Below are positions 17,945 through 33,504 of a DNA stretch of 64,000 nucleotides, in pieces. The position numbers and the translations under genes are program-made. This stretch comes from Microbacterium murale (lineage in GTDB: Bacteria > Actinomycetota > Actinomycetes > Actinomycetales > Microbacteriaceae): positions 1,054,001 to 1,118,000 of the forward strand of contig NZ_BMCM01000001.1 of NCBI RefSeq assembly GCF_014635185.1. The letters are read 5' to 3'. The number at the start of each line of letters is the position of its first letter. Position 1 is the stretch's first letter. A model generated the notes under the pieces. It saw nothing but the letters and a program-made list of their open reading frames with translations. It was not told the origin of the DNA and ran no database searches.

Positions 17945-19009
17945 TCAGCGCGAACCGTGACCGGTGGAGGCTCGGAGCATCACGTCCGGCTCGATGTATT
18001 CGGCGACGACACCTTCCGTCGCGGTGCCGTCCAGGATCGCGAGCAGTCGCTGAGTGGCGCGGCGGGCCACCTCGGCCACCGGCAGACGGACGGTCGACAG
18101 CGGCGGATCCATATATCTGGAGAAGGGATAGTCGCCCCAGCCGATGACCATGACGTCGTCCGGTACGCGGATGCCGCGATCGCGCAGCGCCGCATAGATT
18201 CCGAGCGCGAAGTAGTCGTTGCCCACCAGGAAGGCGTCCGGGATGCGACCGCTTTCAAGCAGGTCCACCCCGACCCGGTGGGCATCCTCTCCGCGCCAGA
18301 GGGATGCGCCGCGAGCCGTCCGACGTGAGGGGACGAGCGCCGTCCTGCGTGAGTCGAACGGGATGCCGTGGGCTTCGAGGGCGTCGCGGAAGCCGCCGAG
18401 TCGGTGAGCCACGGTCGAGATCTGCAGGTCTTCCTCGACGAGGATGATGTCGCGCGCGCCGCGTTCGAGCAGAGCGGTCGTCGTCATGCGCCGACCGGCC
18501 TCGTTGTCGGTGGAGTAGAAATCCGCCTCGAGATCGGGCAGCTCGCGCGCGACGATGACCAGGGGGACGCCCGCTTTCGTCACTGCTGTCCACGGATTCG
18601 ACCGTCCCTGCACCGGAACCGCGATGATGCCGTCGACCCCTGATCGCAGGGCGGTGTCGACCGCGAACTGCTCTCGGTCGGGATCCTCATCCGAGAGCAG
18701 CAGCAGCAACGTGTACCCCTTCTGTATCGCCTGCTCTTCGATCTCGGCGACCAGGTCGTTGAAGAAGGGGTTGGCGAGATCCGTGATGATCACGCCGATC
18801 GTCCTGCGGGAGCCGAGAACAAGGGAGCGGGCGTGCGCATTCGGCACGTAGCCGATGCGCTCGGCCTCAGCCTTGATCTGCGCGCGCGTGGCATCGCTGA
18901 CCCCCGGCAGATCTCTGAGCGCGCGCGAGACGGTGTTGACCGTGAGGCCGACTGCCTCGGCGACGTCCTGCAGGGTTCGTCGCCGAGGTGCACCCGTCGA
19001 TCTGGGCAT
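17945..19009 (-). CDS. LacI-family transcriptional regulator
   Basis: A 354-residue LacI repressor. The helix-turn-helix TLQDVAEAVGLTVNTVSRAL (about residues 12-31) and hinge helix GYVPNAHARSLV precede the periplasmic-binding-fold sensor (IGVIITDLANPFFNDLV, GVDGIIAVPVQ, DAFLVGNDYFALGIYAAL). It is the third gene of the operon starting at 20337, 13 bases after the small protein. The likely operators, with half-site CGATAA, lie in the divergent promoter region at 20397 and 20536, so it probably controls both operons of this locus. Confidence 0.9.
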   Translation of the reverse strand: MPRSTGAPRRRTLQDVAEAVGLTVNTVSRALRDLPGVSDATRAQIKAEAERIGYVPNAHARSLVLGSRRTIGVIITDLANPFFNDLVAEIEEQAIQKGYTLLLLLSDEDPDREQFAVDTALRSGVDGIIAVPVQGRSNPWTAVTKAGVPLVIVARELPDLEADFYSTDNEAGRRMTTTALLERGARDIILVEEDLQISTVAHRLGGFRDALEAHGIPFDSRRTALVPSRRTARGASLWRGEDAHRVGVDLLESGRIPDAFLVGNDYFALGIYAALRDRGIRVPDDVMVIGWGDYPFSRYMDPPLSTVRLPVAEVARRATQRLLAILDGTATEGVVAEYIEPDVMLRASTGHGSR

Positions 19010-19022
19010 GTGTGGACTCCGA

Positions 19023-19364
19023 TCACTCCTTCAATTCAAGATAGATGCGGAGCATGGGCTCCGTCTCTCCTGAAAGATGCGTGCTGCGCAACCTTAGCCA
19101 GAACCCGAAGTTCGTCGCCGAAATCGAGACGAATCCCGAGGCGTTCGATTCCACGGGGGCGATGCCCTCATGATCGATCCAGTTCAGACCATCCGGTGAG
19201 ATCTGCACACGGAACTCGACCGTTGTACCCTCGGCCGGCTTCAAGAAGTGGATCCACCAGCGAGCCTCGCCTGCCCACGCCACCTCGAACGGCTCGGTGT
19301 CGTGCACCCCGTCGAGGTCGACGCCGCGCTCGATGACGGCGCTCTGCGACTGTCGCATGCTCAT
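19023..19364 (-). CDS. Uncharacterised small protein, paralogue of the one at 29765
   Basis: A 113-residue protein without signal peptide, predicted mostly beta. FRVQISPDGLNWIDHEG and FGFWLRLRSTHLSGETEPMLRI match the protein at 29765-30091 (EISPDGINWIRRG, FGNWLRVTVTG, then RILIHVN). ATG 19364 is taken because it lies 7 bases after the large-protein stop; longer readings enter that gene. The two small proteins each accompany one large protein of another paralogous pair, implying that large and small act together. The 'SPDGxNW' block is reminiscent of beta-sandwich domains of carbohydrate-active or phage-tail proteins, but no function is assigned. Confidence 0.7.
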   Translation of the reverse strand: MSMRQSQSAVIERGVDLDGVHDTEPFEVAWAGEARWWIHFLKPAEGTTVEFRVQISPDGLNWIDHEGIAPVESNASGFVSISATNFGFWLRLRSTHLSGETEPMLRIYLELKE

Positions 19365-19371
19365 GATCGGA

Positions 19372-20337
19372 TCACCAATCTGCCGAGATGACGGCGGAGT
19401 CGAGGAAGAGGAAGTTGCGGTGCGGCCCAAGTGTGCGCACCGAGAAGTAGAAGTTGAGCAGAGTCTCGAGCGACTCATACTTCTCGGCATACGGCGGCAC
19501 CGGAACATCGCGAAGGTCGTAGACCGTGTTGTTGAACTGGAGTTCGACGTTCGACCGCGTACTCGTGTCGATGAGGAAGCGCACGTAATGCCAGTTCACC
19601 TTGGTGGGCACCTCGTTGAAGCAGGCCTCCTGACGCTCATCGCTCAGGTAGCGCCAGTCCTCGGGATTCGGAGCCGTGAAGTCGCTGTACCGGCCGTAGT
19701 CGTGCTTGCCCTCGAAACGCTCATGCGGTGTGGGCTCGGCGACGGTCGGGTACATCCACTTCTGGATGATGTGACCCTCTTCGTCGGCGTTCTGGAAGCG
19801 CATGACGTTGTGATAGCGAACGCCCTCGTGGCTGAGATCCGTCGCCACGGTGAACGATCCGAACTGCGCCTCGGACGGATGCGAGTTCGCATCCCACGTG
19901 ATGTCGCCGTAGCTGTTCGCCTCTTCGCCACCCCCGAGGTTCGCCTCGACCTTCCAGGCGAGGTGCGCCTCGATCTGCAGCAGCCCGCGTCCTGCCATCG
20001 TCAGACGACGGATGGCGGTGGCCGCATGACCGGGGATGTTGCGGGTCGCGAGCTTGAGCGAGTATGTACCGGTCATTCCGCCGTGCGTGCCGACGTCGAA
20101 GAAGTTCTGGTTCGAGAGTTGCGGCGGGCGGAAGTCGCGGAAGTGCTCATCCATCGAGTCGAGATCGCCGCGGCCGTTGTAGTTGCCGCCGAGCTCGACC
20201 CATCCGTGGGCGCCTTCGTTGAAGTCGTCGAAGGTCAGGATGCGCGCGAGCGGATTGAACTTCGACAGGCGCAGATCGCTGCTGCGGATCGCGTCACGCA
20301 GGCTTGCTGCGGTGCTCGCGACTTCGGGGGTAGTCAC
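19372..20337 (-). CDS. Uncharacterised large protein, paralogue of the one at 27474
   Basis: A 321-residue protein. It starts at GTG 20337, with AAGGAG 7 bases upstream; longer readings would overlap the promoter. The block KFNPLARILTFDDFNEGAHGW and later GGMTGTYSLKLATR, YLSDERQEACFNEVPTKVNWHY (in parts) and VELQFNNTVYDLRDVPVPPY align along the whole length with the protein at 27474-28403. The DDFxxGxxGW start and alternating strands suggest a concanavalin-like beta-sandwich, as in many sugar-binding domains, yet no export signal is present. It is the first gene of the operon large-small-lacI. Confidence 0.7.
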   Translation of the reverse strand: MTTPEVASTAASLRDAIRSSDLRLSKFNPLARILTFDDFNEGAHGWVELGGNYNGRGDLDSMDEHFRDFRPPQLSNQNFFDVGTHGGMTGTYSLKLATRNIPGHAATAIRRLTMAGRGLLQIEAHLAWKVEANLGGGEEANSYGDITWDANSHPSEAQFGSFTVATDLSHEGVRYHNVMRFQNADEEGHIIQKWMYPTVAEPTPHERFEGKHDYGRYSDFTAPNPEDWRYLSDERQEACFNEVPTKVNWHYVRFLIDTSTRSNVELQFNNTVYDLRDVPVPPYAEKYESLETLLNFYFSVRTLGPHRNFLFLDSAVISADW

Positions 20338-20395
20338 CTGTGACTCCTTGACGTTGTGTCTGGCCCCGGCATCGGTGTCGGGGCGATGTGAGGCA

Positions 20396-20424
20396 ACATT
20401 AGTGTTATCGTCACCGGCTGTCAA
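20396..20424 (-). promoter_or_regulatory. Promoter of the large-small-lacI operon
   Basis: On the minus strand TTGACA (20419-20424) and TAATGT (20396-20401) are separated by 17 bases, ending 59 bases before the GTG start. The candidate LacI operator at 20397-20410 lies directly over the -10, as expected for repression. Confidence 0.65.
20397..20410. promoter_or_regulatory. Candidate LacI operator over the left promoter
   Basis: CATTAGTGTTATCG reads CGATAA-CA-CTAATG on the minus strand, an imperfect 14-base palindrome with half-site CGATAA, and covers the -10 of the left operon. The partner site is at 20536. Confidence 0.5.
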
Positions 20425-20535
20425 AGGCCAATTTTACGCAGAGGGCCTTGCAACGCTCGTTCTGAGGAATCCCCGTAAATTCAAGGGAAAATCTGAAGGG
20501 TTGACAATTGCGCCGGGATGCGGGAGGTTCATTAG

Positions 20536-20549
20536 CGATAATGTTCTTG
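20536..20549. promoter_or_regulatory. Candidate LacI operator for the importer operon
   Basis: CGATAATGTTCTTG has the same half-site CGATAA and 14-base geometry as the site at 20397 but in the opposite orientation, 63 bases upstream of the first permease ATG. A TTGACA at 20501 is nearby, but I could not pair it with a well-spaced -10. A short inverted repeat GAGGTC/GACCTC (20581-20598) precedes the ribosome site. Confidence 0.45.
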
Positions 20550-20612
20550 GGTTCGAAGCTGAACTCAGAACCCGTACTCGGAGGTCTACGGTGACCTCTC
20601 TCGGAGGTTGAC

Positions 20613-21536
20613 ATGCTCGGTTACACGATCCGGCGGGTGCTGCTCGCCGTCTTCGTGCTCTGGGGCGTCGTGACCGTCGTCTTCATCATCGTGCGGCTTG
20701 TTCCGTCTGACCCCGCGGTGCTCGTCGCCGGGATCGACGCGACACCGGAGCAGATCGCTACGATCCGCGCACGGATGGGCCTCGATCAGCCGCTCGTCGT
20801 CCAGTACATCGGCTACGTGGCCGGCGCGGTCAGGGGAGATTTCGGTATCTCGTACACCTACGGTGCGCCGGCCATGGAGCTCGTCGCGCAGGTGCTGCCG
20901 AACACGGCACTGCTGGCTTTCCTCGGCTGCACGCTCGCCGTCATCGTCAGCTTTCCGCTCGGCCTTCTCGCAGCTCTCCGGGTCAACCGCTTCACCGACC
21001 GGGTCGTCACCACCGCGAGCCTGTTCACGCAGGCGCTCCCCGGGTTCTGGGTCGGCGTCGTGCTCATGCTCGTCTTCTCCCAGATGCTGCGCCTGCTGCC
21101 GAGTGCGGGCCTCGGCAGTCCGGATGCGCTCGTGCTCCCCGTCGTGACCGTCGCGCTGCCCTTCATCGCGATCCTCACCCGCATGACCCGCAGCGGTCTT
21201 CTCGAGGTCGTCGGCGAGGGCTACATCACCACGGCCCGCGCGAAGGGCCTGTCCGAGCGGATCGTGATCCTGACCCACGCCGCACGCAACGCCCTCATCC
21301 CGGTCGTCACACTCGTCGGCCTCGAGTTCGGCGCACTGCTGGGCGGTGCGGTCATCACCGAGACGGTCTTCAGCTTCCCTGGTGTCGGCAAGCTTCTGGT
21401 CTCCTCGATCCTCTCCCGCGACTACAACCTCGTCCAGGCATGTGTCGTGATCATCGCTGCGGCGTTCGTCATCGTGAATCTGCTCGTCGATCTGCTCTAC
21501 GGCTACCTCGACCCGAGAGTGAGGCTTGCGAAATGA
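20613..21536 (+). CDS. Dpp/Opp-type ABC transporter permease (DppB-like)
   Basis: A 307-residue membrane protein with six hydrophobic segments. The start MLGYTIRRVLLAVFVLWGVV and the long extracytoplasmic loop with GLDQPLVVQYIGYVAGAVRGDFG are typical of DppB, and the EAA loop YITTARAKGLSERIVILTHAARNALIP contacts the ATPase. CGGAGG precedes the ATG. It is the first gene of an eleven-gene operon and overlaps the second permease by 4 bases. The family carries peptides, nickel and also oligosaccharides or glycerophospho compounds; the neighbours here argue against simple peptide use. Confidence 0.92.
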   Translation: MLGYTIRRVLLAVFVLWGVVTVVFIIVRLVPSDPAVLVAGIDATPEQIATIRARMGLDQPLVVQYIGYVAGAVRGDFGISYTYGAPAMELVAQVLPNTALLAFLGCTLAVIVSFPLGLLAALRVNRFTDRVVTTASLFTQALPGFWVGVVLMLVFSQMLRLLPSAGLGSPDALVLPVVTVALPFIAILTRMTRSGLLEVVGEGYITTARAKGLSERIVILTHAARNALIPVVTLVGLEFGALLGGAVITETVFSFPGVGKLLVSSILSRDYNLVQACVVIIAAAFVIVNLLVDLLYGYLDPRVRLAK

Positions 21537-22420
21537 CCGTCCCACCCACGATCGCGATGCAGACGATGCAGCGCGCTCATCGAGCGCGTCGCGGGGTCAT
21601 CGTCCGGATCACGATCCCTCTCGTCGTCATCGGCCTGTTCATCGTCGGTGCCATCGTCGTGCCGATCCTCTATCACTTCGACCCGCTGCACACCGACGTG
21701 CTGCTGCGCCTCAAGGCCCCGGGCACGACCCTCCCCGACGGATCGTTTGCGATCTTCGGCACCGACCAGGTCGGGCAGGATCTCTTCGCCCAGATGATGA
21801 TGGGTGCGCGCGTCTCACTCACCGTCGGCGTGTGTTCGCTGCTCTTCGCCGGAGTGTTCGGCGTGCTCACCGGGCTGCTCGCCGGGCACTTCGGTGGCTG
21901 GGTCGACAACGTGCTCATGCGCATCGCCGACGTGCAGTTGGCGTTCCCGTCGATCCTTCTCGCGATCCTCCTCGCATCGGTGCTCGGCCCGAGCCTGTGG
22001 AACGTCATCGTCGTCATCTCGATCACGAACTGGGTCGTCTTCGCCCGTGTCACCCGCAGTCAGGTGCTCACCCTTCGCAGTCGCGAATACGTCGAGGCCG
22101 CCCGAACCCTTGGCGCGAGCCACTGGCACATCATCGTGCGCACGCTGCTGCCAGGCTGCGTCGCTCCGATCCTCGTCGTCGCCACCGTCGAGTTCGGGCA
22201 CGTGGTGCTGCTCGAGGCGGCGCTCTCGTTCCTCGGAGTCGGCGTGCCCCTCGGCATCCCCAGCCTCGGAACCACCATCAGCAACGGCACCGCGTATCTC
22301 AGCACCGCGTGGTGGATCTCGACCCTTCCCGGCATCGCGCTCGCTGCTCTCGTGCTCTCCACCGGAGTGCTCGGCGACGCCTTGCGCGACCGATTCGACC
22401 CGAAGTTGCGGAGCGCCTGA
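21533..22420 (+). CDS. Dpp/Opp-type ABC transporter permease (DppC-like)
   Basis: A 295-residue partner permease. It has an N-terminal anchor (VIVRITIPLVVIGLFIVGAI), the DppC mark FGTDQVGQDLFAQMMMGARVSL, and the EAA loop YVEAARTLGASHWHIIVRTLLP. ATG 21533 gives the ATGA overlap with the upstream stop. The stop shares one base with the next start, so dosage of the four transporter subunits is coupled. It works as the second half of the membrane channel with the 20613-21536 product. Confidence 0.92.
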   Translation: MTVPPTIAMQTMQRAHRARRGVIVRITIPLVVIGLFIVGAIVVPILYHFDPLHTDVLLRLKAPGTTLPDGSFAIFGTDQVGQDLFAQMMMGARVSLTVGVCSLLFAGVFGVLTGLLAGHFGGWVDNVLMRIADVQLAFPSILLAILLASVLGPSLWNVIVVISITNWVVFARVTRSQVLTLRSREYVEAARTLGASHWHIIVRTLLPGCVAPILVVATVEFGHVVLLEAALSFLGVGVPLGIPSLGTTISNGTAYLSTAWWISTLPGIALAALVLSTGVLGDALRDRFDPKLRSA

Positions 22421-23457
22421 TGACGATCTCCCATGCCCCCGAGGCACGAACCCCCAACGCCAGCGCCGGTGAGCCGCTGCTGAGCGTGCAGGATCTTCAG
22501 GTCGAGTTCTCCACCTCGGCCGGTGTCGTGCGTGCACTCGACGGCGTGAGCTTCGACGTCGGACCCGGCGAGACCGTCGCGGTCCTCGGCGAGTCCGGTT
22601 CGGGGAAATCAGTCACTGCCCAGGCCATCATGGCGCTGCTTCCCCAGCCCGCGGGCTCCATCGTCGGCGGCCGCATCCTCTTCGGGGGCCGTGACCTCGC
22701 CGCGGAACCGGTCTCGAAGGTGCGGGAGCTCTGCGCGACCGAGATCGCGATGATCTTCCAGGACCCGCTCAGCTCGCTCAACCCGGTGTACCGGGTCGGC
22801 TGGCAGATCGCAGAGCTGTTCCGACGTCGCCGTGGCACGCCCAAGCAGGAGGCGTGGGCGAAGTCGCTCGAACTGCTCAAGCGCGTCGGCATCCCCGACG
22901 CCGAGACCCGCATCCGCGACTACCCCCACCAGTTCTCGGGCGGGCAGCGCCAGCGCATCATGATCGCGATGGCGATCGCCCTCGAACCGAAGCTGCTCAT
23001 CGGGGACGAGCCGACGACCGCGCTCGACGTCACGGTGCAGCAGCAGGTCATGAACCTTCTGGCCGACCTGCAGGCCGAGTCCGGCATGGGAATGATCCTC
23101 ATCAGTCACGATCTCGGCGTCGTCGCCGAAGTGGCCGACCGTGCCGCGATCATGTACGCGGGCCGGATCATCGAGACCGGCGGTATCCGACAGGTCTACG
23201 ACCACCCTGCGCACCCGTACACCCGCGGTCTGCTGGATTCGATACCGAGCACCACCTCGGGTGAGCGGCTCAAGCCGATCGTCGGCTCGCCCCCGAATCT
23301 GCTCGCACTGCCGACCGGATGCTCGTTCCATCCCCGTTGCCCATTCGCCACCGAACTGTGCCGCACGACCTCTCCGGCTCTGCGCCAGCCCGAAGGCTGG
23401 AGCGCCGGCCATCTTGCGGCCTGCCACCGTTCCGAGGAGGTGCTTCCCCATGACTGA
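22420..23457 (+). CDS. Dpp/Opp-type ABC ATPase (DppD-like)
   Basis: A 345-residue ATPase. Walker A is GESGSGKSVTAQ (about residue 60), with Q-loop MIFQDPLSSLNPVYRVG, signature FSGGQRQRIMIAMAIA, Walker B LLIGDEPTTALD and switch His in LISHDLGVVAE. The C-terminal oligopeptide domain has GCSFHPRCPFATELC, the cysteine pattern that holds an iron-sulfur cluster in Dpp/Opp ATPases. Start ATG 22420 overlaps the preceding stop by one base. It forms a heterodimer with the next gene product. Confidence 0.93.
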   Translation: MTISHAPEARTPNASAGEPLLSVQDLQVEFSTSAGVVRALDGVSFDVGPGETVAVLGESGSGKSVTAQAIMALLPQPAGSIVGGRILFGGRDLAAEPVSKVRELCATEIAMIFQDPLSSLNPVYRVGWQIAELFRRRRGTPKQEAWAKSLELLKRVGIPDAETRIRDYPHQFSGGQRQRIMIAMAIALEPKLLIGDEPTTALDVTVQQQVMNLLADLQAESGMGMILISHDLGVVAEVADRAAIMYAGRIIETGGIRQVYDHPAHPYTRGLLDSIPSTTSGERLKPIVGSPPNLLALPTGCSFHPRCPFATELCRTTSPALRQPEGWSAGHLAACHRSEEVLPHD

Positions 23458-24274
23458 TCAGTCGAAACCGCTGCTGAGCGTCGAACATCTCAAGGTGTCG
23501 TATCCGATCCGCTCCTCGATCCTGTTGCGCAAGACCGGAGAGAACGTCGCCGTCTCCGACGTGAACTTCGAGATCCGACCCGGCGAGACCGTGGGGCTGG
23601 TAGGTGAGTCCGGATCGGGCAAGTCGACGATCGCGCGCACGATCATCGGGCTCGTGCCCGCAGCCGACGGCATCATCCGCTTCGAGGGCAACGACATCAC
23701 GGAGCTCTCCCTGCGTCAGATGAAGGACATGCGCCGTGACATGCAGATGATCTTCCAGGACCCGTACGCCTCACTCAACCCACGGCTCACGGTGCGCGAC
23801 ATCATCGCCGAGGGGTGGCGTGTGCACACGGGCATCGTGTCGCGCGAGCGCTGGACGGCCGAGGCGAAGGATCTCATGGAGCGGGTCGGGCTCAACCCGG
23901 ACTACTCCGATCGGTATCCGCATCAGTTCTCGGGCGGTCAGCGTCAGCGCATCGGCATCGCGCGGACCCTCGCGCTGCGGCCGAAGCTCATCATCTGCGA
24001 CGAGGCGGTCAGCGCGCTCGACGTCTCGGTGCAGGCGCAGGTGCTCAACCTTCTCGAGGACCTGCAGGCAGACCTCGGGCTCTCGTACCTCTTCATCTCG
24101 CACGACCTGTCGGTCATCGAGCACATCTGCGATCGCGTGCTGGTGCTCAACAAGGGCGTCGTCGTCGAGGAGGGTACGGCCAGGGAGCTGTTCGACAACC
24201 CGCAGCATCCTTACACGAAGGCGCTCATTGCCGCGGTTCCGGTCGTGCGGCCCTGGCTGGAGGAGACATCGTGA
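23450..24274 (+). CDS. Dpp/Opp-type ABC ATPase (DppF-like, short)
   Basis: A 274-residue ATPase with Walker A GESGSGKSTIAR, MIFQDPYASLNPRLTV, FSGGQRQRIGIARTLALRP, LIICDEAVSALDVS and FISHDLSVIEHIC. It ends at HPYTKALIAAVPVVRPWLEETS, without the cysteine-containing C-terminal extension present in the partner; this is short for the family but complete by stop position. GAGGAGG precedes the ATG, which overlaps the previous gene by 8 bases. Confidence 0.92.
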   Translation: MTDQSKPLLSVEHLKVSYPIRSSILLRKTGENVAVSDVNFEIRPGETVGLVGESGSGKSTIARTIIGLVPAADGIIRFEGNDITELSLRQMKDMRRDMQMIFQDPYASLNPRLTVRDIIAEGWRVHTGIVSRERWTAEAKDLMERVGLNPDYSDRYPHQFSGGQRQRIGIARTLALRPKLIICDEAVSALDVSVQAQVLNLLEDLQADLGLSYLFISHDLSVIEHICDRVLVLNKGVVVEEGTARELFDNPQHPYTKALIAAVPVVRPWLEETS

Positions 24275-24930
24275 GCCGGACCATCACCGTGCACCTCGTG
24301 CGCCACGGCGAGTCGCTGTGGAATGTCGAAGGGCGCTATCAGGGCCAGCAGGATTCGGGTCTCACGGCCGACGGGCGAGCGCAGGCCGCGCAGTTCGCAG
24401 AGCTCTTCGCGCTGCAGGTGCCGGCGCCCGACCTCGTCGTCTCGAGCGATCTGCCCCGCGCGAAGGATACCGCCGCGCGCTATGCCGAGCGCACTCGGAC
24501 GAGCGTCAGCTACGACCCGGCGCTGCGAGAGATGAGCGTGGGGGACTGGGCAGGTATGACGCTCGAGGAGGCTGAGCGGCAGCATCCCGAACTCGTTGCC
24601 GCGGTCGCCGCCGGCGAAGATCACCGACGCGGAGGGGGCGAGACGTTCGGTGAGACCCGGGAGCGGGTCGTCAGGGCGATCGAGCAGGTCACAACCCGGC
24701 TCGAGAAGGAGGACGGCGACCGGGTCGCCGTGGTCTTCACGAGCGGCAACCCCATCCGGCTCGCCGCGGCTCACATGCTCGGCATCCCATCGCCGGGTCA
24801 CATGCCGCTCGGGGCACCCGACAACTGCTCCGTCACGACCTTCCATCTGCGTGACGGGCGCAGCGAGGTCGTGCGCTACAACCATGACGTCGCGCCGGCT
24901 CGTCCGGCGGACCCGAGGGAGATCTCGTGA
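24271..24930 (+). CDS. Histidine-phosphatase-family protein
   Basis: A 219-residue member of the phosphoglycerate-mutase-like superfamily. The nucleophile motif is LVRHGES (His12), with PDLVVSSDLPRAKDTAARYA and LREMSVGDWAGMTLEEAE giving the conserved Arg and Glu. The second catalytic His is replaced: where most members read S-H-G-G, this protein has VVFTSGNPIR. Some actinobacterial relatives show the same change, so it may define a subfamily rather than an inactive protein. The GTG start overlaps the ATPase stop, placing it firmly in the importer operon, where dephosphorylation of an imported or processed compound is the natural guess. Confidence 0.85.
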   Translation: MSRTITVHLVRHGESLWNVEGRYQGQQDSGLTADGRAQAAQFAELFALQVPAPDLVVSSDLPRAKDTAARYAERTRTSVSYDPALREMSVGDWAGMTLEEAERQHPELVAAVAAGEDHRRGGGETFGETRERVVRAIEQVTTRLEKEDGDRVAVVFTSGNPIRLAAAHMLGIPSPGHMPLGAPDNCSVTTFHLRDGRSEVVRYNHDVAPARPADPREIS

Positions 24931-25724
24931 CCGTACCGCTCACCTTCATCGCTCAGACCCACAACCTGTGGGGCGATCATCATGCCGCCGAGCGGGAGAC
25001 CGCGATGCGCGCCCTCTACGAGCTCCGCGCTCCCGACCTGCTCGCCACGCAGGAGACGCGCGCCTGGTCGCGGGACCTGCTGGATGCCGCGATGCCCGGT
25101 CACGACCGCGTGAACGACGATTTCCCCGGGTGGGAGAAGCAGAGCAACCTGTGGTGGAACCGCGAGCTGTTCAGCGAGATAGAGCACGGCGCCGAGGATG
25201 TCGGCATCCATGACGCGAACGCCCGCCTGTTCTGGGTGCGGCTGCGCGTCGCAGGAGGAGACCGGACGATCCTCTGGACGACAGCGCACCTCTCGTACTC
25301 CGGCAACGCGGTCGAGGTCGAGACGGGGATCAACCAGCGCACGCCGCAGGCGCATCGCGTCGTGGAGGAGCTCGGGCGGCTCGGGGAGGACGACGAACCG
25401 GTCTTCTTCGCCTCAGACACGAACGCGATCGCGACGGCCATCTGGGTGATCGGCAACGCCGGCTACCTCGACTCTTTCAGCGCGCTGAACCGGCAGGCTC
25501 CGCCGACGCATCCCGTCGTGCCCAATCCGTTCCGCGAGACTGTCGGCACGCCGAAGTCGCCCGTCGCGAGCCCGCACAAGACCATCGACTACATCTTCTT
25601 CCGAGGACCAGTGCGCCCGCGCAGCGCCGAGGTCGTGGAGTTCTTCGATCGGGGGATATCGCCCAGCGATCATCACCCGGTCGCATCAGCGTTCACCCTG
25701 CCAGGCCAGTCCGGGCTCGAGTGA
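24927..25724 (+). CDS. Endonuclease/exonuclease/phosphatase (EEP) fold phosphoesterase
   Basis: A 265-residue metal-dependent phosphoesterase. The active-site blocks occur in order: THNLWGD (Asn13), LLATQETRAW (Glu43), TTAHLSYSG, FFASDTNAIA, TIDYIFFRG and SDHHPVAS. The family includes nucleases, sphingomyelinases and inositol-phosphate phosphatases; with no DNA-repair neighbours and a small-molecule importer around it, a phosphodiester or phosphomonoester metabolite is a likelier substrate than DNA. No signal peptide, so cytoplasmic. ATGA overlap with the upstream gene. Confidence 0.85.
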   Translation: MTVPLTFIAQTHNLWGDHHAAERETAMRALYELRAPDLLATQETRAWSRDLLDAAMPGHDRVNDDFPGWEKQSNLWWNRELFSEIEHGAEDVGIHDANARLFWVRLRVAGGDRTILWTTAHLSYSGNAVEVETGINQRTPQAHRVVEELGRLGEDDEPVFFASDTNAIATAIWVIGNAGYLDSFSALNRQAPPTHPVVPNPFRETVGTPKSPVASPHKTIDYIFFRGPVRPRSAEVVEFFDRGISPSDHHPVASAFTLPGQSGLE

Positions 25725-25779
25725 GCAGCACCAAGTCGGACCCGACAAACCAAGTCACATCGAATCAAAGGAGACAGCA

Positions 25780-27363
25780 ATGACATCGCTACGCGCAAAG
25801 ATGCGCTCGATCGCCGCAGTCGCGGTGGCCGGAGCTCTTCTTCTCACAGGGTGTTCGGGCGGAGGCGGTGGTGGAGGCTCGACAGAGCCGCTGCCAGACG
25901 ACCAGCAGACCCTCACCTACATCCCGGCGTACGGCTGGGCCGCGTCCGACATCTCGCAGGCGCCCCTGGAGATCGGCATCAACATGGCGATCTCGCAGAC
26001 GCTCGAGACTCTCGTCACGCTCGACGACGAGAACCAGCCGCAGCCCAAGCTCGCCGAGTCCTGGGAATGGACCGACGACACGACCCTCGTCTTCCACCTG
26101 CGTGAAGGCGTCACCTACTCCGACGGCACGCCCTTCACCGCTGCCGACGTGAAGGGCTCGATCGAGCGGTACATCGCGTGGGAGGCCGCGCTGAAGACGG
26201 TGCTCTCCCCGATCCAGTCGGTCGAGGCCACCGATGACCTCACCGTCACGATCAAGACCGCAGGCCCATCGGGAACACTGGTCGGCGTTCTCTCGATGGT
26301 CTACATCGGAAAGGCCGAGTTCTCGCATCCCGACACGATGATCCAGGCCGACAACGACTACTGGGCTCAGCCGGTCGGGACCGGACCGTTCATCATCGAC
26401 GACTACGTCGCCAACGACCACTTCACCTTCGTGCGCAACGAGGACTACTGGGGTGAGAAGGCGAAGCTCCAGAAGCTGACGATGAAGCAGATCACCGACG
26501 TCAACGGCAAGATCACGGCGCTGTCGAACGGTCAGGCGCAGATCGTGGGCGACGTGCCCTACGATCAGGTCGCGCAGGTCGAGGCGATGAACGACGTCAA
26601 GTTCGTGCAGGAGAGCAGCCTGAACTATTACTTCCTGTGGTTCGACAACAAGAACGAGTTCCTCAAGGATCAGCGCGTCCGCGAGGCGATGTGGGCAGCT
26701 CTCGATCTGAAGACGATCCAGGAGTCGCTCTACGGCGACACGGCGAAGACCATGACGTCGTTCTGCCCCGAGGCGGCCTTCGGATGCGTCGAGCCGACCG
26801 ACGGCATGGTCGAGTACGACCCGGAGCACGCGAAGGAGCTGCTCGCCGAGGCCGGATACCCGGACGGCTTCACCGTGGACGCGATCTACAGCACCGCCAA
26901 CGGCGCCGGTTTCGCCAACATGATGCAGGCGTTCATCTCGGCCTGGCAGGAGATCGGTGTCACGGTCGAGCCGCGGGCTCTGGATGCCGCGTCCTGGCTG
27001 AAGGAGTTCGGCACGGTCAACGAGGCGGATGGAACGCACGCATGGGACATGGACGTGCAGCCGAACCAGACGATCACCGGTGACGCCGACTACACGATCT
27101 ACCGTCTGTACAACTGCACGGCGGCTCGTCTCGGGTACTGCAACGAAGACCTGGACGCGCTGACGACGAAGGCGCAGCAGCTCACCGATCCCGATGAGCG
27201 CCTGGAGCTGTACCAGCAGGCGATCGACATCATGCGGGCCGACACACCGGCGATCCCGCTGCTCGAGATCAACGTCAACGCGGCGATGTCCTCGAATGTC
27301 GAGGGTCTCGTGATCCCTGCGAACGAGTTCATCGACTTCAGCTCGGTGTACCTCACGCAGTGA
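25780..27363 (+). CDS. Family 5 (Dpp/Opp-type) substrate-binding lipoprotein
   Basis: A 527-residue lipoprotein. The signal peptide ends in LLLTGC (lipobox), with a long glycine run after the Cys as linker. The SBP_bac_5 core shows LAESWEWTDDTTLVFHLREG, then VTYSDGTPFTAADVKGSIER and GTGPFIIDDYVANDHFTFVRNEDYW (in blocks). It captures the substrate for the permease and ATPase genes upstream. AAAGGAG precedes the ATG after a 55-base gap. The cavity cannot be read for specificity by eye. Confidence 0.92.
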   Translation: MTSLRAKMRSIAAVAVAGALLLTGCSGGGGGGGSTEPLPDDQQTLTYIPAYGWAASDISQAPLEIGINMAISQTLETLVTLDDENQPQPKLAESWEWTDDTTLVFHLREGVTYSDGTPFTAADVKGSIERYIAWEAALKTVLSPIQSVEATDDLTVTIKTAGPSGTLVGVLSMVYIGKAEFSHPDTMIQADNDYWAQPVGTGPFIIDDYVANDHFTFVRNEDYWGEKAKLQKLTMKQITDVNGKITALSNGQAQIVGDVPYDQVAQVEAMNDVKFVQESSLNYYFLWFDNKNEFLKDQRVREAMWAALDLKTIQESLYGDTAKTMTSFCPEAAFGCVEPTDGMVEYDPEHAKELLAEAGYPDGFTVDAIYSTANGAGFANMMQAFISAWQEIGVTVEPRALDAASWLKEFGTVNEADGTHAWDMDVQPNQTITGDADYTIYRLYNCTAARLGYCNEDLDALTTKAQQLTDPDERLELYQQAIDIMRADTPAIPLLEINVNAAMSSNVEGLVIPANEFIDFSSVYLTQ

Positions 27364-27368
27364 CAGCT

Positions 27369-27402
27369 GATGGCGGGGGCGGCGCGAGCCGTCCCCGCCA
27401 TC
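27369..27402 (+). terminator. Strong hairpin after the binding-protein gene
   Basis: GATGGCGGGG/CCCCGCCATC (10 perfect pairs), a G-T pair and CGGC/GCCG closing a GCGA loop give a 15-pair stem with a GNRA-type tetraloop, 6 bases after the stop. No T-run follows. It could stabilise the binding-protein message or attenuate the downstream genes. Confidence 0.7.
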
Positions 27403-27473
27403 GTCGTCTCAGCATCCACTTCCCGGCATCCGAGTACCGCATCCAAGTCCACGTATCCAAGGAGAGCAAGCGC

Positions 27474-28403
27474 ATGCAGAAAGTCCTCAGTTACGACCGC
27501 GGCCTGGAGCGGTTCAACCCGCTGGCCAGGGTCATCACCTACGACGATTTCGACACCGGGTACAACGGCTGGCTGGATCTCACGCCGAACTTCGTCTACG
27601 ACGACTACGGGTCCTTCGATTCGGTCGTCGACCTCTCGAGTTGGGCTCCCACGCAGCTCAGTTCGGGCGCGATGCGGTTTGCCTCTTCGCACGGGTCGAT
27701 GGAGGGCACGTACTCGCTCAAGCTCAGCACTGCGCCGACCGGTGGCCCGCACACCGAGCCGCCACGGCCGGGGAGTATGGGGCACGCGATCAAGCGACTG
27801 TCCAGGTTCGGCGATCCCGATCTCATCCAGATCGAGGCGTGGTACTCGTACACGCCGGCGCAGGACCGCTTCGGGATCGGCGAGGACGACATCCGCGCGT
27901 TCGGCTTCTTCTTCGATGTGCAGGATGCCGAGCACCGATACATGCCGGGCGTCAGGTACGTCAATGCGCTCGGCGGGAAGCCGGTGCGCAAGTGGCAGTA
28001 CTACCGGGTCGCGGATGGTGTGAGCAGGGCGGACTGGAACTTCGGTGTCGAGGACGGCTGGTGCGTTCCGGGCGTGGACAACCAGTGGTACGGGCGCCGG
28101 TTCGAGGACGGCTCCACCGATGGGTATCAGTGGATCCCCGGCGGTGAGCAGCAGCTGGTGTTCAACGAGAGCCCGGACAAGATCAACTGGATGTACTTCC
28201 GGCTCACTGTCGACGTGCGCCAGAGGCGTTATGTCGAGCTGCAGTCAATGGATCAGGTATTCGACATGCGCGAGCTGGCTCCCACTCTCGTGCCGGGCTA
28301 CAAATCGATCAAGGACCTCATCAACCCGGTGTTCTTCGTCGAGACCGACACCGATCGGACCGTGAACCTCTACCTGGATTCGGTCGTGTACTCGTGCGAG
28401 TGA
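27474..28403 (+). CDS. Uncharacterised large protein, paralogue of the one at 19372
   Basis: A 309-residue protein starting MQKVLSYDRGLERFNPLARV after AAGGAGA. It shares with the 19372-20337 protein the opening FNPLAR(I/V)-T-DDF, the GS/GGM(E/T)GTYSLKL block, E-x-Q(E/L)-FNE-P-K-NW and VELQ---YD(L/M)R(D/E). The protein looks like one long beta-rich domain with many aromatic residues (YYRVADGVSRADWNF), as in carbohydrate-binding folds. No signal peptide or catalytic motif is recognised. It overlaps the FAD oxidoreductase start by 4 bases. Confidence 0.7.
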   Translation: MQKVLSYDRGLERFNPLARVITYDDFDTGYNGWLDLTPNFVYDDYGSFDSVVDLSSWAPTQLSSGAMRFASSHGSMEGTYSLKLSTAPTGGPHTEPPRPGSMGHAIKRLSRFGDPDLIQIEAWYSYTPAQDRFGIGEDDIRAFGFFFDVQDAEHRYMPGVRYVNALGGKPVRKWQYYRVADGVSRADWNFGVEDGWCVPGVDNQWYGRRFEDGSTDGYQWIPGGEQQLVFNESPDKINWMYFRLTVDVRQRRYVELQSMDQVFDMRELAPTLVPGYKSIKDLINPVFFVETDTDRTVNLYLDSVVYSCE

Positions 28404-29761
28404 ACGGGGCCGTCGCCGAGCCCGCGCGCGAGACTCCGGTCGTCGGGACGTTCGACGTGATCGTCGCCGGCGGCGGTCCGGCGGGAGTGATCGCCGCGAT
28501 CGCGGCGGCGCGCGGCGGGGCGCGCACCCTGCTCATCGAGCGGTACGGGTTCGTGGGCGGGATGGCGACGAGCGCACTGGTCACGCCGATCAGCGAGTTC
28601 CGCGTCGGCGGGCGTCAGCACATCGGAGGGATCCCTCTCGAGCTCATGCGGCGTGCGGCAGCGCTGGGCGGGGCCGAACTCGAACGCGACAGCGGCAACT
28701 GGCCGGTCAACGACGAGATCTTCAAGCTCGCCGCGCAACGGCTGCTGCTGGAGAGTGGCGTGACGCTCTTGCTGCACACATGGATCGCGGATGCCGTGGC
28801 CGAGGACGGTCGGGTCAGTCACGTGATCGTTCAGAACAAGGCCGGTCGGGTGGCTTACGCCTGCGAGTCGGTGGTGGACTGCACGGGAGATGCGGACATC
28901 GTGCGCGCGGCTGGGCTGCCGGCCACCAAGGGCGATGTGCTGCAGCCGGCGACCCTGTGGTTCCAGCTCGGCGGCGTCGACACCGACGCGCTCGGGTACG
29001 TCTTCGGGGATGCTGTGGACGGCATCCTCCCCGTGTCGGAGTCGATCCGCGCCCGGCTGGCCGAACTGCACGAGGCCGGTGAGGTGCCGCTGTTCGGCGG
29101 CCCGTGGATCAACAGTTTCTTCCACGACGGGCTCGTCAGCATCAACGTGCTGCGCGAGGCCACCGACGCGAGCGATCCGGAATGGTTCTCCCGCACCGAG
29201 ACGAGCCTGCGCGAGAAGATGCACGCGCTCATCGACGTGCTCCGTCGGGAGTTCCCGGAGTTCCGGGATGCGTGGCTGGCGAAGTCGGGCATCCAGACCG
29301 GGGTGCGCGAGACGCACCACATCGTCGGGCTGTACGAGCTGACCGGAGACGACATCATCCATCCGAAGGCGTTCCCCGACACGGTGGCGAAGGGCGCGCA
29401 CACGATCGACATCCATCACACGGACAGCATCGATCAGAGTGACTTCGTCATCCTCCGCCACCCCTACAACGTGCCGTTCCGTGCTCTCGTGCCAGAGGGC
29501 AGCGAGAACGTCGTCATCGCCGGGCGGTGTCTGTGCGCCGATGGCCCCGGATTCGGATCCGTGCGGGTGATGGCGACGTGCATGGCGATGGGTCAAGGGG
29601 CGGGAACCGCCGCCGCGCTCGCCGTGCGTCACGGCCTGACGATGGGCGAGATGGACTTCGACCTGTTGCGTGCTGCGCTGATCGACGACGGGGCGATCAT
29701 CGACTTCGACAACGTCCACGTCGAGAACATCGCGGCACTCGCCGGAACTGACAGGAGCTGA
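28400..29761 (+). CDS. FAD-dependent oxidoreductase (FAD_oxidored-type)
   Basis: A 453-residue flavoprotein. FDVIVAGGGPAGVIAAIAAA (about residue 18) is the dinucleotide-binding loop, followed by LIERYGFVGGMATSALV, VDCTGDADIVRAAG and the C-terminal FAD block NVVIAGRCLCADGPGFGSVR then MATCMAMGQGAGTAAALAV. This family contains unassigned oxidoreductases often found in polysaccharide- or polyol-degradation loci. GTG 28400 is chosen because it gives the GTGA overlap used across this operon; a GTG two codons earlier is possible. It would oxidise or reduce the imported compound. Confidence 0.85.
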   Translation: MNGAVAEPARETPVVGTFDVIVAGGGPAGVIAAIAAARGGARTLLIERYGFVGGMATSALVTPISEFRVGGRQHIGGIPLELMRRAAALGGAELERDSGNWPVNDEIFKLAAQRLLLESGVTLLLHTWIADAVAEDGRVSHVIVQNKAGRVAYACESVVDCTGDADIVRAAGLPATKGDVLQPATLWFQLGGVDTDALGYVFGDAVDGILPVSESIRARLAELHEAGEVPLFGGPWINSFFHDGLVSINVLREATDASDPEWFSRTETSLREKMHALIDVLRREFPEFRDAWLAKSGIQTGVRETHHIVGLYELTGDDIIHPKAFPDTVAKGAHTIDIHHTDSIDQSDFVILRHPYNVPFRALVPEGSENVVIAGRCLCADGPGFGSVRVMATCMAMGQGAGTAAALAVRHGLTMGEMDFDLLRAALIDDGAIIDFDNVHVENIAALAGTDRS

Positions 29762-29764
29762 GTC

Positions 29765-30091
29765 ATGCTGCAGAACAACACCTCCGTGCTGGCCAGGAGG
29801 GTCGTCATCGATGGAGACTTCGCGACGCTGGCGTACGAGGCAGGATGGGCGCGTGAGGCCGTCGTCTTCGTGCAGGTCGAGGGCGGTCATCCCGATCTCG
29901 TCGTGGCGACCGAGATCTCGCCGGACGGGATCAACTGGATCCGTCGCGGTGAGCCCGCGACGCTGTCAGCGGATGCGACGATCGCAGAGCTTTCACTGTC
30001 GGCGTTCGGCAACTGGCTGCGGGTGACGGTGACGGGTGCGTCGCCGGAGGCACCCGCCCGCATCCTCATCCACGTGAACGGGAAGAGCTGA
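29765..30091 (+). CDS. Uncharacterised small protein, paralogue of the one at 19023
   Basis: A 108-residue, beta-rich cytosolic protein. VVATEISPDGINWIRRGEPA and SAFGNWLRVTVTGASPEAPA correspond to the same positions in the 113-residue protein at 19023-19364, and both end in a hydrophobic strand (RILIHVN/RIYLEL). It begins 3 bases after the oxidoreductase stop. The reappearance of the same large plus small pair on the other side of the divergent promoter is the best evidence that the two form a functional unit. Confidence 0.7.
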   Translation: MLQNNTSVLARRVVIDGDFATLAYEAGWAREAVVFVQVEGGHPDLVVATEISPDGINWIRRGEPATLSADATIAELSLSAFGNWLRVTVTGASPEAPARILIHVNGKS

Positions 30092-30102
30092 ACGGGCGAC
30101 GT

Positions 30103-31167
30103 GTGACCGGCCGCAAGCACATCGCCCATCAGGGCGTGCACCTGCGCGCGACGATCGCCGGGGAGAACTCGCTCGAGGCGCTGAGGCTCGCCGCTCGCGC
30201 CAGGTTCGAGTGCGTCGAGATGGATGTGCGACTGAGCCGCGACGATGAATTCGTCGTCATGCACGACGAGACGCTGAACCGCACCTGCCTCGATCGGCAC
30301 GGTGGCGAGCTGACCGAACTGGTCCCGGTGTGGAGCAGAACGCTCGACGAGCTCAGGGAGGGGTACGTGCTCAGGGCTCGTGAGTCGCAAGTCCGCGAGC
30401 GGATCCCCACGTTGCGCGAGTATCTCGAGGAGGCACGCCGACTCGGCATCCTGCCGTTCATCGAGCTGAAGCTGCACGACCAGCCGCGTCGCGTCTACGA
30501 CGATCTCCTCGACATGGCTTCGGAGATCCTCGGGCGTGACGGATTCGTGATCACGTCGAACAACAATGCCAACCTCCTCATCCGCGGTCTGGGGGTTCGC
30601 GACGTCACGCTGATGGGCATCCTGTATCAGACGACGTTCGAGGAGATCGAGGGGCTGGGCGGCACGATCATGGCCATCAGCCTCACGCGGTTCGACGCAG
30701 CCGAGCACGCGGCGCTGGCCCGGCGCGCCCATGAAGCGGGGATTCTCACCGAGACGCACGTCGACACCATGGCGATGCTCGCTTGGGCGGATGAGCGCGG
30801 GATCGAGTATCTGTCGACCGACGTCATCGCACCGGATGCCGCGGCCGAGGCGTCGGTCGTCTTCGCCGCGGATCTGCAGGCGGCCGCGCACGACGGGCTT
30901 GCGGAGAACGGCGTTGTGACGCTCGACCCCGGACAGCGGCTGACGGTCGCCTCGCCGGAAGTGCCGTTCGGCGCGGCCTTCCTCGAGATGCGGATGTCGG
31001 GAGCGTGCGACGGGCGGTTCGCCGGGCAGGAGTTCACGGTGGATGCTGCGGAGAGCACCCGCGTTCGTCATCAGTTGCTTCTGAGTCGGAGGCGCGCCGA
31101 GCTCAGTTTCGTCGCCCGCTCGGCGTGCGTCATCGAGAGCATCGGGCTGAAGGTCACAGAGCTCTGA
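30103..31167 (+). CDS. Glycerophosphodiester phosphodiesterase-like protein with extra C-terminal domain
   Basis: A 354-residue protein. Residues 1-250 are a GDPD TIM barrel: HIAHQG with His9, GENSLEAL (Glu21, Asn22), VEMDVRL (Glu39, Asp41), VMHDETLNRT (His54) and FIELKL. The first motif reads AHQG rather than AHRG. Such enzymes split glycerophosphodiesters into glycerol 3-phosphate and an alcohol. Residues about 265-354 form an added beta-rich region (VVTLDPGQRLTVASPEVPFG and on) not present in standard GDPDs. Start GTG 30103. Last gene of the importer operon. Confidence 0.82.
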   Translation: MTGRKHIAHQGVHLRATIAGENSLEALRLAARARFECVEMDVRLSRDDEFVVMHDETLNRTCLDRHGGELTELVPVWSRTLDELREGYVLRARESQVRERIPTLREYLEEARRLGILPFIELKLHDQPRRVYDDLLDMASEILGRDGFVITSNNNANLLIRGLGVRDVTLMGILYQTTFEEIEGLGGTIMAISLTRFDAAEHAALARRAHEAGILTETHVDTMAMLAWADERGIEYLSTDVIAPDAAAEASVVFAADLQAAAHDGLAENGVVTLDPGQRLTVASPEVPFGAAFLEMRMSGACDGRFAGQEFTVDAAESTRVRHQLLLSRRRAELSFVARSACVIESIGLKVTEL

Positions 31168-32587: not shown

Positions 32588-33504
32588 CGGGTTCCGTGAC
32601 GTCGGTCCGTCCCAAGGGAGCCCCCTCGTCGACGGGCCGACGTCCCGGAACGCTCGGAGGTCGGTTGCAGGCGATCCCGTTCCTGCTGCCGGCCGTGGCG
32701 CTCGTCGGCGTCATGCTGCTCGTCCCCTTCGCCGCGACGGTCTATCAGAGCTTCACGAACGACGACGGATTCACCGCCGACTTCATCGGGGTCGACAACT
32801 TCTTCCGGTTGGCCAGCGACCCGCTGTTCGGACAGTCACTGTTGAACACGGTGATGTGGACGGTGGGAACACTGGTGCTGCCGGTCGGCATCGGTCTGCT
32901 CGTCGCCGTGTTCACGTCGCAGATGAAGGGCGGCAAGTGGCTCCGGCTCGCATTCGTCCTGCCCTACGCGCTCTCCGGCGCCGCGACCGCTGTGATCTGG
33001 GGCTTCATCCTGCGATCCGACGGTGCGCTCAACCAAGCCATCGCATTCTTCGGCGGTAGCCCGGCGGCATCGGGATGGCTGCTGGAGTGGCCAACGAACA
33101 CCATCGTGATGATCCTCGCCAATACTTGGCAGGCAACCGGTGTGGCGGTCATCCTCTTCCTCGTCGGACTTCAGGCCATTCCGTCCGAGACCGTCGAGGC
33201 CGGCGCCCTCGACGGAGCGACCGGTTACCGGCTGTTCTGGCACATCATCGTTCCTCAACTGCGTCCGGTCACCGTCGTCGTCATCGGGATGTCGATCGCG
33301 AACAGCCTGCGCGTGTTCGACATGATCTGGCTGCTCACCAAGGGCGGCCCCGGAGGGTCATCCGAGACGCTCGCCGTGACCATGTATCGACAGACCTTCA
33401 TCATCAGCGACTACGGCTATGGCGCGGCGGTCGCGGTGGTGCTGGCAATCATCGTCGTGGGCGCGTCCTGGGCCTATCTGCGACAGCAACTGAAGGAGAG
33501 CTGA
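32584..33504 (+). CDS. Sugar ABC transporter permease (MalF-like)
   Basis: A 306-residue CUT1-type permease with six hydrophobic segments after a cytosolic leader. PFLLPAVALVGVMLLVPFAA is the first helix, and the EAA loop IPSETVEAGALDGATGYRLF faces the ATPase. Start GTG 32584 gives a GTGA overlap with the binding-protein stop. No ATPase gene is present in this operon, as is usual for CUT1 systems that borrow a shared MsmK-type ATPase. It pairs with the permease at 33508. Confidence 0.9.
   Translation: MTGSVTSVRPKGAPSSTGRRPGTLGGRLQAIPFLLPAVALVGVMLLVPFAATVYQSFTNDDGFTADFIGVDNFFRLASDPLFGQSLLNTVMWTVGTLVLPVGIGLLVAVFTSQMKGGKWLRLAFVLPYALSGAATAVIWGFILRSDGALNQAIAFFGGSPAASGWLLEWPTNTIVMILANTWQATGVAVILFLVGLQAIPSETVEAGALDGATGYRLFWHIIVPQLRPVTVVVIGMSIANSLRVFDMIWLLTKGGPGGSSETLAVTMYRQTFIISDYGYGAAVAVVLAIIVVGASWAYLRQQLKES

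What the first reader, a model, noticed from the sequence alone, without database searches (positions are those of the whole stretch)
17945..31167. Two divergent operons combining an importer, three phosphoesterase-type enzymes, an oxidoreductase and duplicated unknown protein pairs
Seen: left operon large-small-LacI; right operon DppB-C-D-F, histidine phosphatase, EEP phosphoesterase, binding lipoprotein, large, FAD oxidoreductase, small, GDPD, with ATGA/GTGA overlaps. Known: GDPD, EEP and histidine phosphatase families act on phosphodiesters and phosphomonoesters; family-5 importers can carry non-peptide compounds. Inference: uptake of a phosphodiester- or polyol-containing molecule and its stepwise breakdown, with the unknown proteins as binding or auxiliary enzyme parts. 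I know of no described pathway with this gene set.
Basis: partly seen in the sequence, partly recalled or inferred. Interest (0 to 1): 0.8.

Follow-up and report, generated by a model that had tools for sequence, protein, structure and literature searches.

The report
Acid-sugar operon with uncharacterised lectin-fold pair

Summary
Both operons share an apparent control point: an operator-like motif occurs exactly twice in the 3.9-Mb genome, both times between the operons, and persists with small changes in four relatives. The phosphodiester idea fails: homologues of the phosphatase and EEP lie near DUF6772 in 2 of 83 other loci, the GDPD in 0 of 83. The conserved core is DUF6772-DUF6385: adjacent in 92 of 100 cases, in the same 4 of 148 genomes with equal copy number, spread over ten phyla. 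Elsewhere the pair often sits with sialidase-, NanM/SSF-, NanA-, MR/MLE-, LarA- or mannitol-dehydrogenase-type genes: 44 of 75 loci against 2 of 40 control regions. Models show a concanavalin-type jelly roll and a small beta-sandwich. Best reading: import and cytoplasmic breakdown of an acidic sugar, DUF6772-DUF6385 being a two-part enzyme. Substrate and reaction are unproven; the host lacks NanE.

The parts
17945..19009 (-). LacI-family repressor, probable regulator of both divergent operons
   Evidence: PF00356 46.7 bits, PF13377 106 bits; operator-like motif found only at this locus
19023..19364 (-). DUF6385 small partner, left copy
   Evidence: PF19912 24.5 bits, below the 26.8 cut-off; aligned with the family in A3
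19372..20337 (-). DUF6772 large partner, left copy
   Evidence: PF20562 385.9 bits
20397..20410 (+). putative LacI operator, left (CATTAGTGTTATCG)
   Evidence: one of 2 matches in the whole genome, 0 in the reversed-pattern control; similar sites in relatives
20530..20543 (+). putative LacI operator, right (CATTAGCGATAATG), just after a TTGACA-17-GAGGTT candidate promoter at 20501-20529 (promoter placed by eye)
   Evidence: the promoter scan did not list this promoter
20613..21536 (+). DppB-type permease
   Evidence: sequence; homologues in 12 of 83 loci; no Pfam scan made
21533..22420 (+). DppC-type permease
   Evidence: sequence; homologues in 14 of 83 loci; no Pfam scan made
22420..23457 (+). 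DppD ATPase
   Evidence: PDB matches to DppD/OppD-type ATPases, best 8j5q 2.9e-134
23450..24274 (+). DppF ATPase
   Evidence: sequence with Walker A and SGGQ motifs; homologues in 24 of 83 loci; no Pfam scan made
24271..24930 (+). histidine phosphatase, branch 1, with TSGN at the usual second-histidine site
   Evidence: PF00300 170.3 bits
24927..25724 (+). endonuclease/exonuclease/phosphatase (EEP) protein
   Evidence: PF03372 33.6 bits
25780..27363 (+). family-5 substrate-binding lipoprotein
   Evidence: PF00496 275.4 bits; LLTGC lipobox in the sequence
27474..28403 (+). DUF6772 large partner, right copy
   Evidence: PF20562 313.8 bits; model mean pLDDT 91.5
28400..29761 (+). FAD-dependent oxidoreductase
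   Evidence: PF12831 352.5 bits
29765..30091 (+). DUF6385 small partner, right copy
   Evidence: PF19912 31.7 bits; model mean pLDDT 96.5
30103..31167 (+). GDPD-family protein, local addition
   Evidence: PF03009 66.1 bits over the N-terminal half of the profile; no homologue in 83 other loci

Best explanation
A LacI-type repressor controls two divergent operons for uptake and cytoplasmic breakdown of an acidic sugar (a uronic, ulosonic or related sugar acid, perhaps as a glycoside). Shown by sequence: gene content, operon overlaps, two operator-like sites found nowhere else in the genome, and a tightly linked DUF6772-DUF6385 pair present twice. Inferred: the lipoprotein and DppBCDF import the compound; in the cytoplasm the FAD oxidoreductase oxidises one hydroxyl; DUF6772, a jelly-roll protein with many invariant charged residues, bound to its small beta-sandwich partner DUF6385, binds the acid group and cleaves or rearranges the sugar, by analogy with keto-sugar and lyase-type jelly-roll enzymes. 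The diverged second pair would handle a second form of the substrate. The phosphatase, EEP and GDPD are lineage-specific extras.
For: DUF6385 directly follows DUF6772 in 92 of 100 DUF6772 matches in 83 loci; 2 more are cut by locus ends; of the other 6 rows, L013 and L023 have the FAD gene between, as the window does, two are fragments of one gene in L074, and L055 and L056 show no partner (L009/L019 and L011/L069 are the same contigs counted twice). Both families occur in the same 4 of 148 genomes (own included) with copy numbers 2, 1, 2, 1. Partner distances correlate (r 0.75, 69 pairs), and for 11 of 14 copies in the seven loci with two mapped pairs the nearest large and nearest small protein come from the same pair. 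Acid-sugar markers in 44 of 75 loci against 2 of 40 control regions; FAD oxidoreductase 18 of 75 against 0 of 40. A Chloroflexota locus has the pair followed by NanE (216.5 bits, cut-off 189) and ROK, with DHDPS, sulfatase and Dpp-type importer genes. Bacteroidota: GH33-like sialidase, SSF, NanM-like, NanA-like. Four alphaproteobacterial plasmid loci: FadR/GntR, MR/MLE and the pair. 22 invariant columns in 73 DUF6772 sequences, among them R108, R155, R161, K236, E121, D148, E232. Operator-like sites. Most ABC importers of actinobacterial sialic acid clusters carry SBP_bac_5 (PMC8754123, passages seen).
Against: No activity or ligand is shown for either DUF. Fold matches are weak (TM-scores about 0.3-0.5) and are lectins and calreticulin as much as lyases, so a binding role fits too. 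The window's own two operons carry none of the markers used, and 31 of 75 loci carry none, including Microbacterium AK031 and the Brachybacterium and Enterobacterales loci. Marker queries came from the loci themselves, which inflates their count; taken singly, NanE (0 of 74 besides its source), NanA-type DHDPS (4 of 74 against 0 of 40), LarA (4 of 74 against 1 of 40) and mannitol dehydrogenase (9 of 74 against 1 of 40) are not significantly enriched, nor is the Dpp ATPase (23 of 75 against 12 of 40). The host has no NanE and no NanA above cut-off; one of its NanA-like genes is DapA and one KdgD-type by cut-off. Tessaracoccus keeps a separate nan operon with its own importer, whose binding protein is about 28% identical over part of its length to the DUF6772-linked one, so substrates probably differ.
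Confidence: 0.5

Rival explanations
1. Phosphodiester or phospholipid-headgroup pathway: the importer brings in a phosphodiester, GDPD and EEP cut it, the histidine phosphatase removes phosphate.
For: Three phosphoesterase-type genes lie in the same operon run; two overlap the importer genes or each other translationally.
Against: Only 2 of 83 other loci have the phosphatase and EEP, 0 of 83 the GDPD; two of the three enzymes have unusual catalytic motifs (motifs recalled).
Confidence: 0.12
2. The substrate is N-acetylneuraminic acid itself or a modified or anhydro form, taken up by a SatABCD/ST3-like importer, with the pair doing a preparatory step before NanA.
For: Nan-like gene set with the pair in an Anaerolineae genome; GH33-like protein directly upstream in Microlunatus; NanA-like gene next to the pair and a Dpp importer in a Bifidobacteriaceae MAG; strong NanE in 13 of 20 pair-bearing Actinomycetota genomes tested against 34 of 148 relatives (hits of 79 bits or more, counted by hand; 3 of these 34 also carry the pair; the two sets are not matched for taxonomy).
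Against: Window genome lacks NanE and a NanA above cut-off; in Tessaracoccus the canonical nan operon is separate; mannitol dehydrogenase, MR/MLE and LarA neighbours fit uronic or aldonic acids better.
Confidence: 0.13
3. DUF6772-DUF6385 is a non-catalytic cytoplasmic sugar-binding or stabilising complex (lectin plus carbohydrate-binding-like partner) that hands intermediates to neighbouring enzymes or senses them.
For: Fold neighbours of DUF6772 are mostly lectins, and those of DUF6385 include carbohydrate-binding modules; neighbouring enzymes vary while the pair is constant.
Against: Many strictly invariant charged residues in DUF6772, more than I would expect of a lectin; compact alphaproteobacterial operons leave little else to act on the substrate.
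Confidence: 0.2
4. Ordinary peptide importer with unrelated genes swept into one operon.
For: Dpp-family importers usually carry peptides (general knowledge); best NCBIfam hits of the binding protein are nickel and peptide types, all far below cut-off.
Against: Operator-like pair found only here; a homologue of the binding protein accompanies DUF6772 in 16 of 83 loci from several families; no peptidase among the operon genes scanned.
Confidence: 0.05

Closest known systems
Actinobacterial nan clusters with ST3 (SBP_bac_5) sialic acid importers
   Same: family-5 binding protein with Dpp-type importer and cytoplasmic breakdown; DUF6772 lies inside a nan-like set in one Chloroflexota genome
   Different: no nanA/nanK/nanE in the window operons; no NanE in the genome; core is DUF6772-DUF6385
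Sugar-acid operons with MR/MLE dehydratase, FadR/GntR and sugar ABC importer
   Same: compact regulator-importer-enzyme layout, with DUF6772-DUF6385 inside
   Different: window has a Dpp-type importer, LacI control and a FAD oxidoreductase, and no MR/MLE gene in the two operons
Jelly-roll polysaccharide lyases (alginate lyases such as Aly36B), concanavalin-type lectins
   Same: overall fold class of the DUF6772 model
   Different: low TM-scores, about 10% identity, no sequence match in the PDB
Keto-glycoside pathways (FAD dehydrogenase plus 3-keto-disaccharide hydrolase)
   Same: FAD oxidoreductase beside a jelly-roll protein; a PF06439 gene follows the pair in Chitinophaga
   Different: different protein families; the analogy is recalled and inferred, not tested

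Membership tests
PF20562 DUF6772 | score above the curated cut-off of 27 bits | tested here: met
   385.9 and 313.8 bits
PF19912 DUF6385 | score above the curated cut-off of 26.8 bits | tested here: inconclusive
   right copy 31.7 (met), left copy 24.5 (just below)
Family-5 (Dpp/Opp) ABC importer | SBP_bac_5 binding protein and Dpp-type ATPase | tested here: met
   275.4 bits; DppD PDB match 2.9e-134; permeases not scanned
nan (Neu5Ac) catabolic cluster | NanE (PF04131) in the genome | tested here: not met
   0 matches in the own genome; control rings in 8 of 14
nan (Neu5Ac) catabolic cluster | NanA above the curated cut-off (NF003164) | tested here: not met
   best 142.4 bits, cut-off 281; that gene passes the DapA cut-off
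Glycerophosphodiester utilisation unit | GDPD kept with the importer and core genes in relatives | tested here: not met
   0 of 83 loci
Two-subunit enzyme | physical complex of DUF6772 and DUF6385 | not testable with these tools
   only single-chain models could be made; genetic linkage supports it
Acidic-sugar catabolic operon | binding protein recognises a sugar acid | not testable with these tools
   needs a binding assay

The most novel reading that the evidence does not exclude
DUF6772-DUF6385 is a previously undescribed two-subunit enzyme, jelly-roll catalytic subunit plus small beta-sandwich partner, that performs a common step in breakdown of acidic sugars (sialic-acid-like, uronic and related acids) in at least ten bacterial phyla, working together with PF12831 FAD oxidoreductases in some lineages.
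Probability: 0.4. Interest if true: 0.7.

Novelty: new variant of a known kind. Interest (0 to 1): 0.5.

Why it matters
A tightly paired, widely spread protein duo, for which the searched library gave no paper by family name or Pfam number (DUF6772, DUF6385, PF20562), sits in many sugar-catabolic operons. If it is an enzyme, it fills a missing step in acidic-sugar catabolism and would let many 'DUF' genes be named (380 confirmed relatives of the large protein in one genome scan). The single-locus operator pair gives a clean way to look for the inducer.

Tried and rejected
Phosphodiester pathway: rejected as the core function. Canonical Neu5Ac catabolism in this host: rejected for want of NanE and NanA. 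The downstream GlcNAc-2-epimerase-fold gene (34345-35586) first looked like the missing ManNAc epimerase, but its best NCBIfam match is D-mannose isomerase (304 bits, cut-off 600), and it lies after a gap in what looks like a separate operon. Recent duplication of the pair: rejected. A Kdo/RG-II or Kdn substrate was considered from memory; one paper search gave nothing useful. blastn finds no match of the Superficieibacter DUF6772 gene in the E. coli genomes. My gene caller took some antisense ORFs: in Microlunatus L025 the true gene on the other strand is a GH33-like protein with a Tat-type signal by eye. SusC/SusD names for two large Bacteroidota clusters (c18, c15) are my presumption from size and place; they were not scanned. 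The family tally of 114 neighbours was uninformative: only 25 of 154 families are shown, and even the known EEP and phosphatase members in the set do not appear. A sigma-70 scan did not list the two promoters I place by eye. Other paper searches gave sialic acid papers or nothing on this gene set. Only one paper was opened, PMC8754123, and only passages of it.

Rows dropped: A2 used 71 of the 80 loci plus the two window copies (redundant or partial copies left out); A3 used 47 of the 73 rows of its cluster, chosen for diversity; one search used 75 of 84 loci (left out: the window, duplicates L009 and L011, near-duplicates L034 and L068, fragment L074, and L047, L051, L071 under 8 kb) and counted query-source loci in the 44; its 40 control regions, at positions I picked, come from 25 genomes that carry the pair; one search tested 50 of 80 loci (49 genomes); one search aligned 114 of the 119 proteins listed; one search mapped 69 pairs, and two pairs in 7 loci (the window and 6 of the 16 loci with two or more DUF6772 matches). 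One search kept 80 of 380 confirmed relatives.
Full report
What is there. The window lies in a 3.9-Mb, 18-contig genome; the nearest named relative of the right-hand large protein is in Microbacterium sp. AK031 (97% identical). The 'large' and 'small' unknowns are Pfam families DUF6772 and DUF6385; plasmid records name the large one 'DUF6772 family protein' or 'hypothetical protein' and the small one 'hypothetical protein'. No paper in the searched library holds the words DUF6772, DUF6385 or PF20562.

One regulon. The divergent intergenic region holds two copies of CATTARYGWTAWYG, at 20397-20410 and 20530-20543. This pattern occurs exactly twice in the whole genome and its reversed control not at all. 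The pattern was derived from these two sites, so the test shows that they are rare, not that LacI binds them. Similar sites, with none to a few changed bases, stand in L023, L013, L014 and L017 while much of the region around them diverges. By eye each lies on or just after a TTGACA-type promoter, which the consensus scan did not list. The LacI gene ends the left operon. The simplest reading is a dedicated repressor for both operons.

The pair. In 83 loci (two contigs counted twice), DUF6385 lies just downstream on the same strand of 92 of 100 DUF6772 matches; 2 are cut by locus ends; of the other six rows, two (L013, L023) have the FAD gene in between, as the window does, two are fragments of one gene (L074), and two (L055, L056) show no partner. 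In 148 genomes (the own one and relatives) the two families appear in the same four, with 2, 1, 2 and 1 copies each. Across 69 pairs the partner distances correlate (r 0.75), though shared ancestry alone gives some correlation; in the seven loci with two mapped pairs, the nearest large and small relatives belong to the same pair for 11 of 14 copies, the exceptions being the two copies of L055 and the left copy of the window, whose nearest partners come from two close relatives. The window's two pairs belong to deeply separated branches. The family is rare: in a sample of 396 genomes of the phylum only the own genome has it. Yet it reaches Actinomycetota, Bacteroidota, Pseudomonadota, Planctomycetota, Verrucomicrobiota, Spirochaetota, Chloroflexota, Acidobacteriota, Gemmatimonadota and Deinococcota; many of these are metagenome assemblies, and the last three phyla rest on one each.

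Structure. DUF6385: mean pLDDT 96.5, all-beta; the top PDB match by E-value is a domain of a Thermococcus protease (3afg), the highest TM-score among the 50 shown is XepA (0.73), and GOLD domains, PirA-type proteins and carbohydrate-binding modules also appear. DUF6772: mean pLDDT 91.5, jelly roll; matches are lectins, calreticulin and alginate lyases at TM-scores of roughly 0.3-0.5. Neither matches a solved structure by sequence, apart from three weak hits (E 0.016-0.79) of the DUF6385 profile, two of them to carbohydrate-related proteins. DUF6772 keeps 22 invariant columns in 73 sequences, including three arginines, one lysine, two glutamates and three aspartates; DUF6385 keeps E25, W28, E31, S52, G55, W58, F81 and K107 in 47 sequences. 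I could not map these onto coordinates.

Company kept elsewhere. Bacteroidota loci carry GntR, BNR proteins, SSF with a NanM-like propeller, two large genes that I presume to be SusC/SusD (not scanned), and in Parapedobacter a NanA-like gene; one BNR family is GH33-like (best 1eur, 1.2e-29) and the aldolase's best solved relatives are N-acetylneuraminate lyases (5afd, 4e-72), though it stays below the NCBIfam NanA cut-off (170.4 of 281 bits). The Anaerolineae locus L032 combines the pair with a Dpp-type importer, GntR and two FAD oxidoreductases (by homology clusters), sulfatase, two DHDPS genes, ROK, and NanE above cut-off. In Microlunatus a GH33-like protein with a signal sequence (by eye) precedes the pair. 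Four alphaproteobacterial plasmid loci show FadR/GntR, MR/MLE and the pair, with sugar ABC genes, and three of them an SDR downstream on the same strand. Spirochaetota and some Actinomycetota add mannitol dehydrogenase, PfkB kinase and Zn-alcohol dehydrogenase. Against 40 control regions that I chose at round positions in 25 genomes carrying the pair, acid-sugar markers taken together are enriched (44 of 75 against 2 of 40), and so is the FAD oxidoreductase (18 of 75 against 0 of 40); singly, SSF/Kelch (18 of 74 against 1 of 40), GH33-like (12 of 74 against 0) and MR/MLE (8 of 74 against 0) stand out, while NanE (0 of 74 besides its source), DHDPS (4 of 74 against 0), LarA (4 of 74 against 1) and mannitol dehydrogenase (9 of 74 against 1) do not reach significance. 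Histidine phosphatase and EEP stay at 2 of 75 and GDPD at 0 of 75 (all). The marker queries come from these loci, so the joint figure is inflated; 31 of 75 loci have no marker, and the window's own two operons have none.

Against a sialic acid reading for this host. The genome has no NanE, its NanA-like genes are below cut-off, one is DapA and one KdgD-type by cut-off; the third, at C1:575061, is an unassigned DHDPS. Tessaracoccus oleiagri, whose nan cluster is described in PMC8754123 (passages seen), holds a separate nan operon with its own family-5 importer, so the DUF6772-linked importer there probably serves another compound. I therefore claim only 'acidic sugar', at about even odds, and mark the reaction as inference.

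The phosphoesterases. They are present but local. Two have unusual catalytic motifs by my recollection of the families: the phosphatase in all three orthologues and the GDPD in the window. They may remove phosphate groups from a particular form of the substrate, or act elsewhere in the cell.

Verdict. The main new point is the tightly paired DUF6772-DUF6385 unit and its acidic-sugar company.

Noticed in passing
window 31292-39673: Separate sugar locus next door: family-1 binding protein, two permeases, a D-mannose-isomerase-like AGE-fold protein (34345-35586), then on the other strand ROK kinase (37399-38325) and LacI (38366-39673); looks like mannose or mannoside use.
   Followed up: partly
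window 24271-24930; L013:6831-7490; L023:6800-7456: Histidine phosphatase orthologues all carry FTSGNPIR where the superfamily usually has the second catalytic histidine (motif recalled).
   Followed up: partly
window 30103-31167: GDPD-family protein with HQG instead of HRG (motif recalled) and a stretch beyond the matched profile; no homologue found in the otherwise very similar Microbacterium AK031 locus.
   Followed up: partly
L153:9397-12302: FAD oxidoreductase (70% identical to the window's) followed by a mannitol dehydrogenase in another genome of the same genus, which has no DUF6772, near a sugar ABC set and LacI like those of the Brachybacterium DUF6772 loci.
   Followed up: partly
L039:6327-7436: GH33-like protein of Chitinophaga with five Asp-box matches but no FRIP-like motif by pattern search, so perhaps not acting on ordinary sialic acids.
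   Followed up: partly
L146 (LR606148.1 plasmid 5): DUF6772-DUF6385 operon on a plasmid typed as conjugative in Rhizobium sp. Q54, beside MR/MLE and a gluconolactonase-family gene.
   Followed up: no
window 61040-61990: 5-dehydro-4-deoxyglucarate dehydratase-type gene (PRK03620 383 bits, cut-off 278): a further sugar-acid gene in the same window.
   Followed up: no
L099:9351-9928: NanE in Pseudolysinimonas appears in two pieces, about 6 kb from a further DUF6772-LacI unit.
   Followed up: no
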